A DNA stretch of 64,000 bases, taken from Vulcanimicrobiota bacterium (GTDB lineage: Bacteria; Vulcanimicrobiota; Vulcanimicrobiia; Vulcanimicrobiales; Vulcanimicrobiaceae). The notes under the pieces were generated by a model, which was not told where the DNA came from, did no database searches, and saw nothing but the letters and a program-made list of their open reading frames with translations. The stretch spans positions 186,001 to 250,000 of the forward strand of contig DAIDHQ010000022.1 of assembly GCA_027459645.1 (NCBI GenBank), given 5' to 3'. This document shows positions 10,255-41,280 of the stretch, one piece after another (the stretch's first letter is position 1; each line of letters begins with the position of its first letter). The translations under genes were made by a program, and so were the position numbers.

Positions 10255-10289
10255 ATCCTGACTTCCTTTACGCGAGGAACGTGATTTTG

Positions 10290-10475
10290 AGTTCGCGTCG
10301 GTATCCTGACTCGCGGATCAACACCATCGTGCTTCGCGCCTTCCCGCCGGTTACGGCTGTGACGACGAAGCGGCTCCCCGCATACAGTGGCGCGACCGTG
10401 CCGGCATCCAACCGGCTTCCCGCGCGCGAACTAACCGGCCGGGAATTAGCAGAGGCGTCGTTCCTCACCTGCTGG
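10290..10475 (-). promoter_or_regulatory. Cobalamin riboswitch (Cbl/B12 box)
   Basis: Read on the minus strand, the leader of btuB carries the conserved cobalamin-aptamer blocks in order: CAGGTGAGGAACGAC, a GCCGGTTGGATGCCGGCACGG segment, the B12-box core CGCCACTGTATGCGGGGAG, and the terminal AGTCAGGATACC. Downstream, TTCCT (10275-10279) can pair with AGGAA (10263-10267) of the ribosome site, which suggests translational control. It should shut off btuBCD when adenosyl- or methyl-cobalamin is plentiful. The 5' end almost reaches the divergent btuF start at 10489. Confidence 0.9.
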
Positions 10476-15912: not shown

Positions 15913-16554
15913 ATGCCCAGTACACAACAACCGCCGATCGCGGGTGCCGTGGTCGATCCGACAAGCGTGCGCCCGCCGATCGATGACGCAACGATCGAAC
16001 GCGTCGACGTGCACGGCGTTCGCGCGCGCCTAGAAGCGCTCAAGGCCGAAGGATACACGATGCTGTTGGACCTCGCGGGCGTCGATTATTTGCCGCGCTC
16101 GCCGCGTTTCGACGTCGTCTATCATCTTCTGAAGATGCCGACGGCGGCTGCGAGCGTGCAGCAGGTCGGCGCGCCGCAACGCTTCCGCTTGCTCTGCGGC
16201 GTCAACGACGGCGAAGCGGTGCCGAGCGCGATCGATCTGTGGCCGAACGCCGACTGGGCCGAGCGCGAAATCTTCGACCTCTTCGGCATCACGTTTTCGG
16301 GCCACGCGGATCTGCGGCGCATTCAAATGCCCTACGATTGGGTGGGCCATCCACTACGCAAAGATTATCCGTTGCGAGGGCCGGCGCAAGAGCGCTCGCC
16401 GCGTCCTTCTTTCGGCTTGAAGAGCAACGTGCTGGCCGGTACGCCGCCGTCGGGACGAACGCTCGAAGCGTTGCAAGAACAAGTCAAAAAGGCGCGCGCT
16501 GCGGATCGGCCGGAGGCCGAACGCGACGGGCTCGCCGGAGGTGAGCCCACGTGA
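15913..16554 (+). CDS. nuoC: NADH-quinone oxidoreductase subunit C
   Basis: 213-residue 30-kDa subunit of the peripheral arm. Hallmark ERE(I/M)xDLFGI (AEREIFDLFGITFSGH) and the following HPLRKDYPL motif are present. The C-terminal about 50 residues are charged and low in conservation. NuoC and NuoD are separate genes here, unlike the fused enterobacterial form. It overlaps nuoD by 4 bp. Confidence 0.95.
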   Translation: MPSTQQPPIAGAVVDPTSVRPPIDDATIERVDVHGVRARLEALKAEGYTMLLDLAGVDYLPRSPRFDVVYHLLKMPTAAASVQQVGAPQRFRLLCGVNDGEAVPSAIDLWPNADWAEREIFDLFGITFSGHADLRRIQMPYDWVGHPLRKDYPLRGPAQERSPRPSFGLKSNVLAGTPPSGRTLEALQEQVKKARAADRPEAERDGLAGGEPT

Positions 16555-17771
16555 GCCTTTCGACGCAGCCGCTCACTCCTGAAATCGTTTCGCAAGAAGG
16601 CAACGCGATGGTGCTTTCGATGGGTCCGCAGCACCCGTCGACGCACGGCGTGCTGCAGATCATGCTCGAAATCGAAGGCGAAACGATCGTCAAAGCCGAG
16701 CCAGAGATCGGCTACCTGCACACCGGCATCGAAAAGAACATGGAAAACCTCTTCTGGTCCCATGGTCAGACGAACGCCGAGCGCATGGATTATCTCGCGC
16801 CGTCTTCGAACGCGCTCTGCTACGCGCTTGCGGTGGAAAAACTTCTCGGCATCACCGATCAGATTCCCGAACGAGCGCAGCACATTCGCGTGCTGCAAGG
16901 TGAGTTGACGCGCATCGCATCGCATTGCGTGTGGTTGGGAACGCACGCGATCGACATCGGTGCGATCTCCGTCTTTTTCTACTGCTTCGACTTGCGCGAA
17001 AACATTCTCGATCTGCAAGAAGCGGCCGGCGGCGCGCGCATGCATCCGAACTACATCCGGATCGGTGGCCTCAACGGCGATCTTCCCGACGGCTATCTCG
17101 ACAAGCTCGATGCGCTGATTGCGAAATTCCCCGGACGGATGAGGGATTTGCGCGGATTGCTGCAAGCCAATCCCATCTTCCAGGACCGGACGATCGACGT
17201 GGGCGTCATCACGGCGCAGCAAGCGATCGAATGGGGCGTCACCGGGCCGGCGCTACGCGGCAGCGGCATAGCCTACGACGTTCGCAAAGCCTATCCGTAC
17301 AGCGGGTACGATCGCTATCAATTCGACGTTCCCACCCGCACCGACGGCGACGCGTACGCGCGCTTTCTCGTGCGTCTCGACGAGATGGAAGAGTCGCTGC
17401 GCATCATCAGTCAGGTGCGCAAGGATCTCAATACACCGGGACCCGTCGCCATCGACGATCCCAAGGTCTTTCCGGTACCGAAAGAAACGATCGCGCTCTC
17501 GATGGAAGCGTTGATCCATCACTTCAAGATCGTGAGCGAAGGCTTTCGCGTTCCGCCGGGCGACGTGTATTCGCCGATCGAAGGGCCGCGCGGCGAAGTC
17601 GCCTTCTATATCGTCAGCAACGGCGAAAACCGTCCGTACCGCGCGCGACTGCGGCCGCCGAGCCTGTACAACCTGCAGTGCCTCAAAGGCATGGCACCGG
17701 GAAATCTGATCGCCGATTTGGTCGTGATGATCGGTTCGCTCGACCCCGTCTTTGGTGAGGTGGACCGCTGA
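16551..17771 (+). CDS. nuoD: NADH-quinone oxidoreductase subunit D
   Basis: 406-residue 49-kDa subunit that forms the quinone pocket with NuoB. GPQHPSTHG near residue 25, IGYLHTGIEKNME, and the C-terminal RPPSLYNLQCLKGM and GSLDPVFGEVDR motifs match NuoD. GTG start overlapping nuoC. A 192-bp gap with a structured repeat separates it from nuoE. Confidence 0.95.
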   Translation: MSLSTQPLTPEIVSQEGNAMVLSMGPQHPSTHGVLQIMLEIEGETIVKAEPEIGYLHTGIEKNMENLFWSHGQTNAERMDYLAPSSNALCYALAVEKLLGITDQIPERAQHIRVLQGELTRIASHCVWLGTHAIDIGAISVFFYCFDLRENILDLQEAAGGARMHPNYIRIGGLNGDLPDGYLDKLDALIAKFPGRMRDLRGLLQANPIFQDRTIDVGVITAQQAIEWGVTGPALRGSGIAYDVRKAYPYSGYDRYQFDVPTRTDGDAYARFLVRLDEMEESLRIISQVRKDLNTPGPVAIDDPKVFPVPKETIALSMEALIHHFKIVSEGFRVPPGDVYSPIEGPRGEVAFYIVSNGENRPYRARLRPPSLYNLQCLKGMAPGNLIADLVVMIGSLDPVFGEVDR

Positions 17772-17794
17772 TGGCGTCGGTTCGGACTGCGACC

Positions 17795-17923
17795 TTCGCC
17801 CGCGAAGACGCTCCTCGCGGCACCTCCTGTGCCGCTCCTGCTGCGCGAGCTTCGCGCCACGATCTAAGGAAGTTCGCATCCTGCGAATGGCGCGAAACTT
17901 CGAGCCTTCGCTTGACGAAGGCC
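17795..17923 (+). repeat. Structured intergenic repeat, copy A (nuoD-nuoE gap)
   Basis: About 129 bp, roughly 85 percent identical to copy B at 20121-20246. Nested inverted repeats: TTCGC/GCGAA (17795-17806); GCGGCAC-5 nt-GTGCCGC (17817-17835); an outer stem TTCGCGCCA (17851-17859) with TGGCGCGAA (17888-17896) enclosing TTCGCA-tcc-TGCGAA (17873-17887); and GCCTTCG/CGAAGGC (17904-17922). One outer-stem base pair changes from C-G here to T-A in copy B, so pairing is preserved. It could act as an RNA stability or processing element between operon segments, or be a non-autonomous mobile element. No ORF is supported in it. Confidence 0.8.
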
Positions 17924-17963
17924 GCAATTCGAAGCGCGCAATCTTCGGTCCAGGTGATGAAGA

Positions 17964-18845
17964 ATGCATAGTCAGAACCCGCCCATGGGCGTCGGCGACG
18001 ACGTGAAGCTTGCGTCGCAGAACGCAGCCTCCGGCGCGCAGCCTCATCAACAGATGGACGGCGCCCAGGCGCACGAAGGCGAAACGTTCGCAAAGCTCTA
18101 CGCGCAGTTGCGTCCGCAGTGCGAAGCGCTCATCGCTCAATACGAAGAAAAGCGTTCGGCGCTCTTGCCGATGATGCACCTGTTTCAAGAGCACGAAGGC
18201 TACGTCTCGCACGACGCGATGCGCGCCGCAGCCGAGATGCTCGATCTCTCCCCGGCGGTGGTCGAGTCGACCGTTTCGTTCTACACGCTGTTCTTCCGCA
18301 AACCCGTCGGTAAATACGTGCTGCAGGTCTGCCGCGGCTTGATGTGCGAGCTGCGCGGCGCGGAAGAGATTCACAAGTATTTCCGCGAGAAACTCGGCGT
18401 CGGCCATTTGGAGACGACCGACGACGGCTTGTTCTCCTACGAGGAAGTCGAGTGTCTGGCGGCCTGCGATCGCGCGACGTGCATGCAAGTCAATCTCGAG
18501 TTCGTCTACGACCTCACGCCGCAGATGATCGACGAGATGATCGATCTGATGCGTGCCGGGACGTATAAGACCAAGCCGATGGCGCAAACGGCGAAGCCCG
18601 GGCGCACCTGGAAGGTCGACCAAGACCTGCAGGTCTCGCGCGGCGGAAAAGCCCCGGGAACGCTCAACTCGACGCGCCCGAACAATGCGGGCGGCGTCGG
18701 CGATTCCAGCGGCGTCATCATGCTCGACCGTTTCGTCACGAACATCGGCTTTTCGCCCGCGCGAACGCACGAACGCACCGTGCGCGACGCGCGCGGCGTC
18801 TACGAGCTGGCAGAAGAAGGAAGCAACAACAATGCCGGTCACTAA
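17964..18845 (+). CDS. nuoE: NADH-quinone oxidoreductase subunit E with C-terminal extension
   Basis: 293-residue 24-kDa subunit with the thioredoxin-like [2Fe-2S] cluster N1a. Ligands appear as CRGLMC (C-x4-C) and ECLAACDRATC (C-x3-C set). The conserved core ends near residue 200, where NuoE proteins normally finish; a further about 90 residues rich in Gly/Ser/Asn follow (SRGGKAPGTLNSTRPNNAGG, DARGVYELAEEG). The N-terminus also has about 35 extra polar residues. The ATG at 17964 has AGGTGA upstream. nuoF starts 14 bp before its stop. Confidence 0.93.
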   Translation: MHSQNPPMGVGDDVKLASQNAASGAQPHQQMDGAQAHEGETFAKLYAQLRPQCEALIAQYEEKRSALLPMMHLFQEHEGYVSHDAMRAAAEMLDLSPAVVESTVSFYTLFFRKPVGKYVLQVCRGLMCELRGAEEIHKYFREKLGVGHLETTDDGLFSYEEVECLAACDRATCMQVNLEFVYDLTPQMIDEMIDLMRAGTYKTKPMAQTAKPGRTWKVDQDLQVSRGGKAPGTLNSTRPNNAGGVGDSSGVIMLDRFVTNIGFSPARTHERTVRDARGVYELAEEGSNNNAGH

Positions 18846-20094
18846 AGTTCTGACCGAAGGCATCGGTGAAGCGAATTTGCGCGACATCGACGTCTATCGT
18901 CAGCGCGGCGGATACGTGCAGTGGGAGCGCGCGGTGCGCGAACTCACCCCCGCACAGGTGATGGAAGCGGCCGATAAATCCGGCCTTCGCGGCCGCGGCG
19001 GCGCCGGCTTCCCGACGGGCCGCAAGTGGGGCTTCTTACCGAACAACGGAAAGCCGCGCTATCTGGTCTGCAACTGCGACGAGGCCGAGCCGGGCACGTT
19101 CAAGGATCACATGCTGCTCGAGCAGACGCCGCACTTGGTGCTGGAAGGCATCTTGCTCGGCGCCTACGGCATCGGCTGCACGCACGCGTACATCTATATT
19201 CGTGGCGAATTCAAAGAAGGCTACGAGATCTTCACGAAGGCGCTCGCCGATGCGCGCGCCGCGGGGATGTTCGGCAAGAAGCTCTTCGGCACGGACTATA
19301 GCTTGGAAGTTACCGCGCACCGCGGTGCCGGCGCGTATATCTGCGGCGAAGAGACGGGCCTGCTCAATTCGCTCGAAGGCAAACGCGGCGAGCCGCGTCT
19401 GAAGCCGCCGTTCCCCGCAATTGCCGGTCTGTACGGCATGCCGACCGTCGTCAACAACGTCGAAACGCTCGCCTATCTGGTCCCCGTGCTCAAGAACGGC
19501 GCCGAGTGGTTTAGCTCGGTCGGCACCGAACGCAGCAAGGGATATAAGATCGTGAGCGTTTCGGGACACGTGCAGAAACCGGGCAATTACGAAATGCCGC
19601 TCGGCACGACCGTTCGCGAGATCATCGAGATCGCTGGCGGATTGTTGCCCGGCCGCAAATTTGCGGCGGTGCAGCCCGGCGGTCAATCGTCGGCGTGCAT
19701 CTTCGAAGAACACCTGGATTATCCGTACGACTATGAATCGATGGCGAAAGCCGGATCGATGCTGGGATCGGGCGCGTTCACCGTCTTCGACGACTCGACC
19801 GATTTCGTCAAAGCCGCATTCAATTCGGTGCGCTTCTACGCGCACGAATCGTGCGGACAGTGCACGCCCTGCCGGGAAGGTGGCCATTGGCTGGAACGCG
19901 TGCTGCATCGCTTCGTGGAAGGCCGCGGCCTCGCGAGCGATCTGGAGATGATCGAACGCGTCGGCACGACGATCACGGGCTTGAATCTCTGCGCTCTCGG
20001 CGACTCGATCGAGCCGTTCCTGATCTCGGTATTCCGCCGATTCAAACCCCAATTCGAAGCCCGCATCCAACGTGAGGAAGCGGTGGGCGTATGA
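18832..20094 (+). CDS. nuoF: NADH-quinone oxidoreductase subunit F
   Basis: 420-residue 51-kDa subunit that binds FMN, NADH and the [4Fe-4S] cluster N3. GRGGAGFPTGRKW (NADH/FMN site) lies near residue 50, CNCDEAEPGTFKD follows, then GAGAYICGEETGLLNSLEG, and the cluster ligands ESCGQCTPCREG with a later LNLCALGD. The start MPVTKVLTEG at 18832 overlaps nuoE. A 190-bp gap with repeat copy B follows. Confidence 0.95.
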   Translation: MPVTKVLTEGIGEANLRDIDVYRQRGGYVQWERAVRELTPAQVMEAADKSGLRGRGGAGFPTGRKWGFLPNNGKPRYLVCNCDEAEPGTFKDHMLLEQTPHLVLEGILLGAYGIGCTHAYIYIRGEFKEGYEIFTKALADARAAGMFGKKLFGTDYSLEVTAHRGAGAYICGEETGLLNSLEGKRGEPRLKPPFPAIAGLYGMPTVVNNVETLAYLVPVLKNGAEWFSSVGTERSKGYKIVSVSGHVQKPGNYEMPLGTTVREIIEIAGGLLPGRKFAAVQPGGQSSACIFEEHLDYPYDYESMAKAGSMLGSGAFTVFDDSTDFVKAAFNSVRFYAHESCGQCTPCREGGHWLERVLHRFVEGRGLASDLEMIERVGTTITGLNLCALGDSIEPFLISVFRRFKPQFEARIQREEAVGV

Positions 20095-20120
20095 GCTCCA
20101 CTTGTGTCGAACGCAAGGCG

Positions 20121-20246
20121 TTCGCCCGCGAAACCGCTCCTCGCGGCACATCGTGTGCCGCTCCTGCTACGCGAGTTTTGCGCCACGTCCAAAGGAAGTT
20201 CGCATCCTGCGAATGGCGCAAAACTTCGAGTTTTCGCTTGGCGAAC
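20121..20246 (+). repeat. Structured intergenic repeat, copy B (nuoF-nuoG gap)
   Basis: Second copy of the element at 17795-17923, same orientation. It keeps TTCGC/GCGAA (20121-20132), GCGGCAC/GTGCCGC (20143-20161), outer stem TTTGCGCCA (20177-20185) with TGGCGCAAA (20214-20222), inner TTCGCA-tcc-TGCGAA (20199-20213, identical in both) and TTCGC/GCGAA (20233-20245). Differences from copy A fall mainly in loops or are compensated in stems. It explains why nuoG appears to have a long upstream open frame; that frame is non-coding. Confidence 0.8.
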
Positions 20247-20284
20247 GCCGTGCGCTCGCCCCAACCGGAGTCATACGCTTAAAA

Positions 20285-22288
20285 ATGGCCGACGCACAAG
20301 AACTCGTCAACCTCACGATCGATGGCGTTCCGCTGAGCGTGCCGAAGGGTACGCTTCTGGTCGAAGCTGCGAAGCAAATCAAACAAGAGATTCCGGTCTA
20401 CTGCTATCATACGAAGCTCGGACCGGCTGGTTTGTGCCGCGTGTGCTTGGTCGAAGTCGAAGGCATGCCGAAGCTGCAGATCGGGTGCAACACGCCGGTC
20501 GCCGAAGGCATGGTCGTCCACACGCAAAACGCCAAGGTCAATGCCGGACGCGGCATGGTCCTCGAATTGCTGCTGGTCAATCACCCGCTCGACTGTCCGA
20601 TCTGCGACAAGGGCGGCGAGTGCGATCTGCAAGACTACGCGATGGCGTACGGACGCGGATCGTCCGATGTCGCGGATCCGAAGCAATCGAAACCCAAAGG
20701 CGTCGATCTCGGGCCGACGATCGTGCTCGACGAAGAACGCTGCGTGGTCTGCCAGCGCTGCGTGCGTTACGACGACATCATCGCTGCCGAAAGCCAGCTC
20801 GTCGTGAAGGATCGCGGCCACAACGACATTATCGCGACCGCGACGGGCGATCCGTACGCGCACAATTTCACGGGTAACGTAACCGAGCTGTGCCCCGTCG
20901 GAGCGCTGACGTCGAAGACGTATCGCTTCAAGTCGCGCCCGTGGGATCTGGTTCGCACGCAGACGAGTTGCACGCAATGTGCCGTCGGCTGCCAGCAGTT
21001 CGTCGATCAGCGGTCGGGCAGCTTGTTGCGCGCGCAGATGGTCGAGAGCGACGATCGCGTCTCGGACGGATGGCTCTGCGACCGCGGGCGCTACAACATC
21101 GGCTTTTACACTGCGGACGATCGCATCACGCAGCCGCTCTACAACGACAACGGCACGTTCGTGCAGGTCGGGTGGGACGACGCGCTCTCGATGTGGGCGA
21201 AGGCCATTCGCGAAGCGCAGACCGCGGGTAAGGCGATCGGCGCGATCGGCGGCGGCCGGTTATTGAACGAAGAAGCGTATTTACTGCAGCACGTCTTCCG
21301 TGCGATCGGAACGCAGAACCTCGACTGGCGCGCCGGGCGGCAAGCGGTCGCGACGCCCGCCCGCACGGGGACCTATCAGGATCTCGAAAAGGCGGCGGCG
21401 ATTCTGATGATCGGCGAAACGCCGGAAGAGCGCGCGCCGGTGATGTGGCTGCGCGTCATTAAAGCGGTGACGCGCAACGGGGCGAAGCTGATTCGCGTCG
21501 CGACGGCCGACAAGGCGCCCAACATCGCGCACGTCGATGCAAAGAGCGTGGAAGAAGCGCTCTCGCTGCTGCCGGCGCAAGGCCAAGTCGTGGTCGTGTG
21601 GGACGGCATCGACACGTCGGTTGGCGCGAAGATTCGCGACGCGATGGCATCGCGCAACGGCATGGGACTGATCGCAAGCGAACAGCCGAACGCGCGCGGT
21701 GCGGAAGCGATGGGCATGCTGCCGGCGAGCGGCGGCATGGATACCGGCGCAATGTTCGATGCGGCGGGACGCGGCGAACTGGGCGCGCTCTCGCTCTTTG
21801 GCGTAAATCCGGTGCGCAATTTCAGCAATCCGGAGCGCGCGCGTGCCGCGCTCGAAGCGACGCCGTTCGTCGTGGTGAGCGAGCTCTTTATGACGGAGAC
21901 GGCGCGGCTTGCAACGCTGGTGTTGCCGGCGCGCGGGGCTTACGAAAAGAGTGGAACCGTGGTGAATATCGCGGGCGATCTGCTGCCGGTCAATGCGTCG
22001 GTGCAAGGGCCGGTCGGAACGCTTTCCGATCTCGAAATGCTCGTCGGACTCGCGCAGCAATTCGGCTTGCCGCTTCCGACGGTTGAAGAACTGGAACGCA
22101 CGGTGATCGAGAAGGCGGCGACCGCGGGTCCGGTCGCGCTTCGAGAGCTTCACGGCGAGGCAGCGCACGATACGATCGCGCGGCCTGCGCGCACGATCTG
22201 GGACGGCGGCGGCACCGCCGCGCACGACCCGCGCATCACGCGAATGCTCGCCGACAAAATGATTCCGACCGAACTGGTGGAGGCCTAA
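20285..22288 (+). CDS. nuoG: NADH-quinone oxidoreductase subunit G
   Basis: 667-residue iron-sulphur subunit. The N-terminal [2Fe-2S] domain has CYHTKLGPAGLCRVC and a fourth Cys in IGCNTPV. His/Cys cluster: HPLDCPICDKGGECDLQD. Two-[4Fe-4S] region: CVVCQRCVRYDD and ELCPVGAL. A further CTQCAVGC cluster (N7 type) precedes the molybdopterin-oxidoreductase-like domain. The ATG at 20285 (MADAQELVNLTIDG) is the family-like start; upstream open frame is the repeat. Confidence 0.95.
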   Translation: MADAQELVNLTIDGVPLSVPKGTLLVEAAKQIKQEIPVYCYHTKLGPAGLCRVCLVEVEGMPKLQIGCNTPVAEGMVVHTQNAKVNAGRGMVLELLLVNHPLDCPICDKGGECDLQDYAMAYGRGSSDVADPKQSKPKGVDLGPTIVLDEERCVVCQRCVRYDDIIAAESQLVVKDRGHNDIIATATGDPYAHNFTGNVTELCPVGALTSKTYRFKSRPWDLVRTQTSCTQCAVGCQQFVDQRSGSLLRAQMVESDDRVSDGWLCDRGRYNIGFYTADDRITQPLYNDNGTFVQVGWDDALSMWAKAIREAQTAGKAIGAIGGGRLLNEEAYLLQHVFRAIGTQNLDWRAGRQAVATPARTGTYQDLEKAAAILMIGETPEERAPVMWLRVIKAVTRNGAKLIRVATADKAPNIAHVDAKSVEEALSLLPAQGQVVVVWDGIDTSVGAKIRDAMASRNGMGLIASEQPNARGAEAMGMLPASGGMDTGAMFDAAGRGELGALSLFGVNPVRNFSNPERARAALEATPFVVVSELFMTETARLATLVLPARGAYEKSGTVVNIAGDLLPVNASVQGPVGTLSDLEMLVGLAQQFGLPLPTVEELERTVIEKAATAGPVALRELHGEAAHDTIARPARTIWDGGGTAAHDPRITRMLADKMIPTELVEA

Positions 22289-41094: not shown

Positions 41095-41280
41095 CAGCGG
41101 CTTGCTACCTCAATCGCAGTTTGAGCTTTGGCACCACGCATCGTGACCCCAAAAAATGGGGAGCCGCGTTAGACACCGCCTTGGTTCGGCGTAGTCTGGT
41201 CTACCTCACTTGGCGTCTCTCGACGTTTCGGGGCAGCGGCTTGTATATTGCGTGGACGCCTCACCTAGCGAGGTATCCAC
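41095..41280 (-). promoter_or_regulatory. M-box (ykoK) magnesium riboswitch
   Basis: Read on the minus strand the 5' leader holds the conserved M-box blocks in order: CGCTAGGTGAGGCG, GCTGCCCCGAAACGTC, GAGAGACGCCAAGTG, GACCAGACTACGCCGAACC with AAGGCGGTGTC, and the distal GGTGCCAAAGCTC with AGGTAGCAAGCCG. This family senses intracellular Mg2+ and turns off transporter genes when Mg2+ is plentiful. It lies about 50 bases before the MgtE-N/CBS gene start. Confidence 0.9.

What the first reader, a model, noticed from the sequence alone, without database searches (positions are those of the whole stretch)
17795..20246. Two copies of a structured repeat inside the complex I operon with a compensatory base change
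Elements at 17795-17923 and 20121-20246 sit in the only two long gaps of nuoA-N (D/E and F/G), bracketing nuoE-nuoF. They are about 85 percent identical, have four to five stems each, and the outer stem switches C-G to T-A with pairing kept. That supports selection on structure. The element may set the ratio of NADH-module subunits by RNA processing or stability, or be a REP/MITE family.
Basis: seen in the sequence. Interest (0 to 1): 0.65.

Follow-up and report, generated by a model that had tools for sequence, protein, structure and literature searches.

The report
Hairpin repeats with self-copying arms
The two look-alike structures in this soil bacterium's respiratory-complex operon are copies of a small mobile hairpin repeat that lands just behind genes in many related genomes; its core is strongly conserved, and its long outer stem stays paired apparently because one arm is repeatedly copied from the other, so base-pair 'compensation' here need not mean selection.

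Summary
Both copies are about 190 bp (17761-17952 and 20087-20278): a ~107-nt branched core inside 41-44-nt inverted arms. They belong to a dispersed family: 9 copies in this genome and hits in 38 of 149 Eremiobacterota genomes, up to 26 per genome. They are insertions. The sister species has nuoD/nuoE and nuoF/nuoG directly abutting.

The family has unusual features. The core is shared, but nearly every copy has its own arms, mostly 20-49 bp. Copies sit just behind stop codons (about 35 convergent, 30 tandem, 1 divergent site). Where an empty site is resolved, the right arm ends in an inverted copy of native left-flanking DNA, including the ends of nuoD and nuoF. Between two species sharing sites, cores differ 0.7%, flanks 8.9% and arms 11%. 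In the arms 23 pairs changed on both sides with pairing kept, against 0.8 expected, nine by double transversion. That fits arm-from-arm copying (template switching) plus selection on the core.

Copy-rich genomes lack detectable reverse transcriptase (PF00078) and REP-type transposase (PF01797), so what moves it is unknown. It is not a dedicated nuo regulator; an RNA-processing side effect remains possible.

The parts
17761..17801 (+). left arm of copy 1; its first 13 nt (TGGACCGCTGATG) are native DNA: the end and stop codon of nuoD plus the ancestral overlapping nuoE start
   Evidence: pairs with 17909-17952; native because G001 and other relatives have the same nuoD end with no element
17802..17908 (+). 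core of copy 1 (107 nt, branched: one hairpin plus a longer arm carrying an internal hairpin)
   Evidence: 125 bits to covariance model R1
17909..17952 (+). right arm of copy 1; outermost part AATCTTCGGTCCA is a decayed inverted copy of the native TGGACCGCTGATG (about 10 of 13 positions)
17769..17773 (+). TGATG at the left junction, repeated at 17955-17959 (possible target-site duplication)
   Evidence: read from sequence against empty site L129
20087..20127 (+). left arm of copy 2; starts with GCGTATGA, the end and stop codon of nuoF
20128..20234 (+). core of copy 2 (107 nt)
   Evidence: 132.8 bits to R1
20235..20278 (+). right arm of copy 2; ends with TCATACGC, the inverted copy of the nuoF end; likely orthologue in G057 (L070) keeps TCATA
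16551..17771 (+). nuoD, upstream gene of copy 1
17964..18845 (+). nuoE, its start displaced about 190 bp from the nuoD stop by copy 1
18831..20094 (+). nuoF, upstream gene of copy 2
20285..22288 (+). nuoG, displaced from the nuoF stop by copy 2 (TAAATG junction in G001 and G012)

Best explanation
Both elements are copies of a small (~170-190 bp), non-coding, dispersed and mobile (at least until recently) hairpin repeat of Eremiobacterota, inserted at stop/start junctions of the nuo operon. SHOWN: shared core, dispersal, empty sites, preference for gene 3' ends, unique paired arms, inverted copies of native flank at the right end, conserved core, and concerted change of the arms. INFERRED: the core nucleates a hairpin in single-stranded DNA during replication. 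The 3' end of the new strand folds back and copies the opposite arm, and at insertion or later also the host DNA beyond it. This re-perfects the arms and extends the palindrome into the neighbouring gene end. The core itself is kept by selection, possibly as a structured RNA or single-stranded DNA of the - strand. In nuo the copies are tolerated because they sit exactly between cistrons. Any effect on nuo mRNA (for example RNase III cleavage of the long stem) would be a by-product. The enzyme that moves the element is unknown.
For: Copies: 9 in this genome and hits in 38 of 149 genomes. Unique arms: median arm score 42 against 14 +/- 5 for left and right arms of different copies, and comparably strong palindromes are nearly absent from 74 kb of flanks (2 others found). 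Empty sites in G001, G012, G077, G058, G000 and G062. Inverted copy of native flank at the right end: L102 (12 bp), L086 (6), L097 (~17), L074 (4), and the nuo copies. Placement mostly 0-60 nt behind stop codons: 35 convergent, 30 tandem, 1 divergent. Nine orthologous pairs G007/G077: core 7/963 changed, flanks 73/821 (p = 3e-18); arms 23 double changes keeping pairs against 0.8 expected (p = 4e-26), 9 of them transversions. Core 107/107 identical but inverted between the arms in one pair. Template switching between inverted repeats is reported to homogenise arms, invert spacers and create perfect stems (PMC8604942, PMC8794818).
Against: The genomes are mostly draft assemblies; assemblers can mis-join or flip a 190-bp palindrome (one G077 contig is a mirror image of itself), so the core inversion is not secure. 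The direction of copying rests on about seven resolved sites, four of them without ascertainment bias. The inner 17-28 nt of the arms match neither the native site nor other copies beyond ~8 nt, so arm origin is only partly explained. The A.C-over-G.U bias is expected from selection on a - strand RNA and is not predicted by template switching alone. No mobilising enzyme was found.
Confidence: 0.68

Rival explanations
1. A functional non-coding RNA family (transcribed from the - strand, antisense to the upstream gene) whose whole structure, arms included, is kept by ordinary selection; arms are free in sequence but must pair.
For: Core conserved 12-fold more than flanks at orthologous sites and closest to its orthologue, not to paralogues. 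Mismatches favour G.U on the - strand in arms and core. Conserved unpaired motifs: two loops reading CAGGAUG on the - strand, and a UUCCU stretch that could pair with one of them.
Against: Double changes are as frequent as single changes in the flanks, include nine double transversions and a co-ordinate indel, which selection through single mutants explains poorly. Arms extend into host gene ends. Sites come and go between sister species.
Confidence: 0.3
2. Retrotransposition: the - strand RNA is reverse transcribed at a nick behind a gene, and the cDNA snaps back on itself to copy the left flank.
For: Explains - strand pairing bias, one-way (left to right) inverted copying and small direct repeats in one scheme.
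Against: No reverse transcriptase (PF00078) in G000, G001, G007, G014, G057, G072, G073, G077 or G090, although several copies appear younger than the G007/G077 split.
Confidence: 0.07
3. The core inserts into pre-existing terminator or other hairpins of the host, so that the unique arms are host stems.
For: Position right behind stop codons; each arm pair is unique.
Against: Empty sites show no palindrome and long palindromes are nearly absent elsewhere in the flanks.
Confidence: 0.03
4. One reading: a regulatory element that sets the ratio of NADH-module subunits by RNA processing.
For: Both gaps bracket nuoE-nuoF, and elements recur in nuo gaps in other genera (D/E in G057 degraded, G005, and in reverse orientation in G014; F/G in G057 and G103; behind nuoK in G073). 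RNase III is known to cut Correia repeats in Neisseria mRNA (review PMC10969869).
Against: G001 of the same genus lacks both; orientation and site vary; the same element sits behind dozens of other genes across the family.
Confidence: 0.08

Closest known systems
Prokaryotic MITEs such as ERIC (127 bp) and Correia/NEMIS elements
   Same: Small, non-coding, dispersed, foldable, intergenic near gene 3' ends, empty sites in relatives
   Different: Conserved unit is an internal core; the arms differ from copy to copy and include inverted host DNA; no shared terminal repeats and no parental IS found
REP / BIME palindromes (GTAG- and CGTC-tagged families, PMC3733652)
   Same: Behind genes, between convergent or tandem genes, G-T pairing noted in stems
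   Different: REPs are 20-40 bp with mostly 6-13-bp stems and are linked to RAYT transposases; here 170-190 bp with 20-49-bp arms and no Y1 transposase in the copy-rich carriers
Template-switch (quasipalindrome) mutations, PMC8794818 and PMC8604942
   Same: Arm homogenisation, multi-base compensatory change, reverse-complement insertions, spacer inversion
   Different: There, scattered single events; here a whole repeat family shows it at most compared copies, next to a core that hardly changes

Membership tests
MITE (sense of review PMC10969869) | 50-500 bp, non-coding, multicopy, dispersed | tested here: met
MITE (sense of review PMC10969869) | terminal inverted repeats shared by the copies and with a parental transposon | tested here: not met
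   arms differ between copies, except one group in G073; no parental transposon was identified, though a full survey was not made
MITE (sense of review PMC10969869) | target-site duplication | tested here: inconclusive
   possible 3-6-bp duplications: GTGA at L074, CTA at L086, TGATG at copy 1
REP / RAYT system | Y1 (RAYT) transposase in the genome | tested here: not met
   PF01797 absent in carriers of the element except weak partial hits in G113
Retroelement (group II intron, retron, DGR) | reverse transcriptase gene | tested here: not met
   PF00078 absent in all copy-rich carriers
Described RNA family (Rfam 15) | covariance-model match | tested here: not met
   no credible match even at E up to 10
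CsrA-sponge RNA (CsrB-like; motif recalled from memory) | CAGGAUG-type loops and CsrA in the same genome | tested here: inconclusive
   loops present on the - strand and CsrA common, but CsrA is also common in genomes without the element
Integron attC | integrase and gene cassettes | not tested
   only the structural analogy of a one-strand hairpin

The most novel reading that the evidence does not exclude
A mobile structured element with no detected transposase or reverse transcriptase of the usual kinds, whose long arms are rebuilt from the opposite arm and from host DNA by fold-back synthesis, while its core is under strong selection as a one-strand (- strand) RNA or DNA structure. It would be a new mode of palindrome growth and a natural case of compensatory base change produced by mutation rather than by selection.
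Probability: 0.4. Interest if true: 0.8.

Novelty: new variant of a known kind. Interest (0 to 1): 0.58.

Why it matters
Covariation is the standard proof of RNA structure. Whether template switching maintains stems is called less clear, with circumstantial evidence, by its own proponents (PMC8794818). This family offers dozens of paired arms next to a slowly changing core, in species pairs with known flank divergence, so the question can be tested with numbers. It also shows palindromes growing into gene ends, and gives a warning for covariation-based annotation of bacterial repeats.

Tried and rejected
Insertion into existing hairpins (rejected by empty sites). Inverted host duplication as the only source of the arms (rejected: 17-28 nt of arm are non-native at L102, L086, L097 and L074, and four G073 copies share arms). 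Slow divergence of one ancestral arm (rejected: L095 and L109 have identical cores and unrelated arms). Reverse-transcriptase or REP-transposase mobility. Known RNA family. CsrA titration: suggestive loops only, presence of CsrA not informative. No similar DNA in plasmid, phage or viral collections; one exact core match in another Eremiobacterota MAG, isolate palsa_1484. The polarity test at the oppositely oriented G014 D/E copy was unclear.

Full report
CHECK. Copies 1 and 2 are 88% identical and sit in the two ~190-bp gaps of the nuo operon. Folding z-scores are -3.3 and -6.2 on the + strand and -5.1 and -6.5 on the - strand. The real palindromes are 17761-17952 and 20087-20278.

FAMILY. BLAST finds seven strong copies in the 3.14-Mb draft genome. 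A covariance model of their cores (R1) finds nine in this genome and hits in 38 of 149 Eremiobacterota genomes, mostly in one family: 26 in G007, 14 in G077, 10 in G072, 7 each in G057 and G073. Nothing similar was found in plasmid, phage or viral collections. Rfam has no match.

ANATOMY. The core is about 107 nt and branched, with many two-sided pair changes across 73 aligned matches. Outside the core nearly every copy has its own inverted arms. Arm pairing scores have median 42 against 14 +/- 5 for arms taken from different copies. In 74 kb of G007 flanking DNA only two other comparably strong palindromes occur. In G007 only the innermost ~8 nt, and a C at distance 12, show a consensus. L095 and L109 have identical cores and unrelated arms, whereas four G073 copies do share arms.

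PLACEMENT. With genes called by codon usage, the core starts within about 20-60 nt of a stop codon in most cases, so that the arm abuts or overlaps the gene end: 35 between convergent genes, 30 between tandem genes (21 with the + strand sense, 9 antisense, p = 0.04), one between divergent genes. Such a preference is also reported for REPs (PMC3733652).

INSERTION. The sister species G001 and most relatives have nuoD and nuoE overlapping or touching; G001 and G012 have nuoF-TAA-ATG-nuoG. G077 (~93% identical to G007) lacks the copies at L086, L096, L097 and L102. At L102 the empty site reads CACGAGTTGAGC|GCTAAACTTCGG. The filled site keeps CACGAGTTGAGC on the left and ends the right arm with GCTCAACTCGTG, its reverse complement, before the native right flank resumes. 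The same is seen with 6 bp at L086, ~17 bp at L097 and 4 bp plus a repeated GTGA at L074; with a decayed ~13 bp at copy 1 from the end of nuoD; with 8 bp at copy 2 from the end of nuoF, shared in part by its likely orthologue in G057; and in a separate element at the G103 nuoF end. Copying is always left flank to right end in the + orientation at these sites, but the number is small.

EVOLUTION. Nine sites are filled in both G007 and G077. Four of these were found by their flanks, not by the core model. Cores differ at 7 of 963 positions, flanks at 73 of 821 (p = 3e-18). Arms change at 11% of positions, and 23 of 301 pairs changed on both sides with pairing kept, where independent mutation predicts 0.8 (p = 4e-26); 14 are double transitions and 9 double transversions. 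In L092/L110 both arms carry a matching length change. For the eight pairs compared, cores are nearest to their orthologue, not to paralogues, so the low core divergence points to selection rather than homogenisation among copies. In L101/L164 the core is 107/107 identical but flipped between the arms; this is a known product of template switching (PMC8604942) but also a possible assembly error.

STRAND. Arm mismatches on the + strand are A.C 96, G.T 40 (p = 2e-6), similar in tandem-sense, convergent and tandem-antisense settings; core pairs show 31 to 10. G.U is thus preferred on the - strand, antisense to nuo. This is unexplained by arm copying alone and is the best hint of a - strand RNA or DNA role. 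Counts are by copy and are not corrected for shared ancestry.

MECHANISM. Reverse transcriptase and Y1 transposase are missing from the copy-rich carriers. I therefore favour replication fold-back for arm maintenance and extension, a process with published precedent (PMC8794818), and leave the mobilising activity open. The step from fold-back to insertion is inference.

FUNCTION IN NUO. There is no evidence of a dedicated role. Elements recur in nuo gaps of other genera at different junctions and orientations, as expected of tolerated insertions between cistrons, but a stem this long could be cut by RNase III, as known for Correia elements (review PMC10969869).

LIMITS. Draft genomes, mostly short contigs; no transcript data; gene calls by a simple codon score; pair counts on a model-fitted alignment lean towards the model; the family was sought by covariance model only in one phylum.

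Noticed in passing
L103, L104, L105 (G007 contig ends): The same IS end, whose ORF resembles the C-terminus of IS110-family transposases (PF02371, E 0.02, below cut-off), sits in the apical loop of the core's first hairpin in three copies. The hairpin loop may be the target site of this IS and may cause the contig breaks.
   Followed up: partly
L215 (G072), L217 (G064), L228 (G062): At gene ends where one species carries this element, other species of the same genus carry different long hairpins with other cores (AACTCGTTGTCG...CTCCTAGATT; ATGACGCCGCGGAACCGCTCAC). The phenomenon may be general in this lineage.
   Followed up: partly
L130-L132 (G101-G103), nuoE start: CCCTTCGACAAGCTCAGGGTGACA-type repeats, partly in tandem, at the start of nuoE: the nuoD/nuoE junction is a recurrent landing site for palindromic repeats.
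   Followed up: no
L163 (G077:C118): Contig with the same gene flank on both sides of the element in mirror image; probably an assembly artefact of the long palindrome.
   Followed up: no
window 41102-41279 (-) and 10279-10459 (-): M-box magnesium riboswitch and cobalamin riboswitch.
   Followed up: no
L031, L032, L033 (another family of the order): A distant relative of the element at one orthologous-looking site in three species, with arms that differ and still pair.
   Followed up: partly
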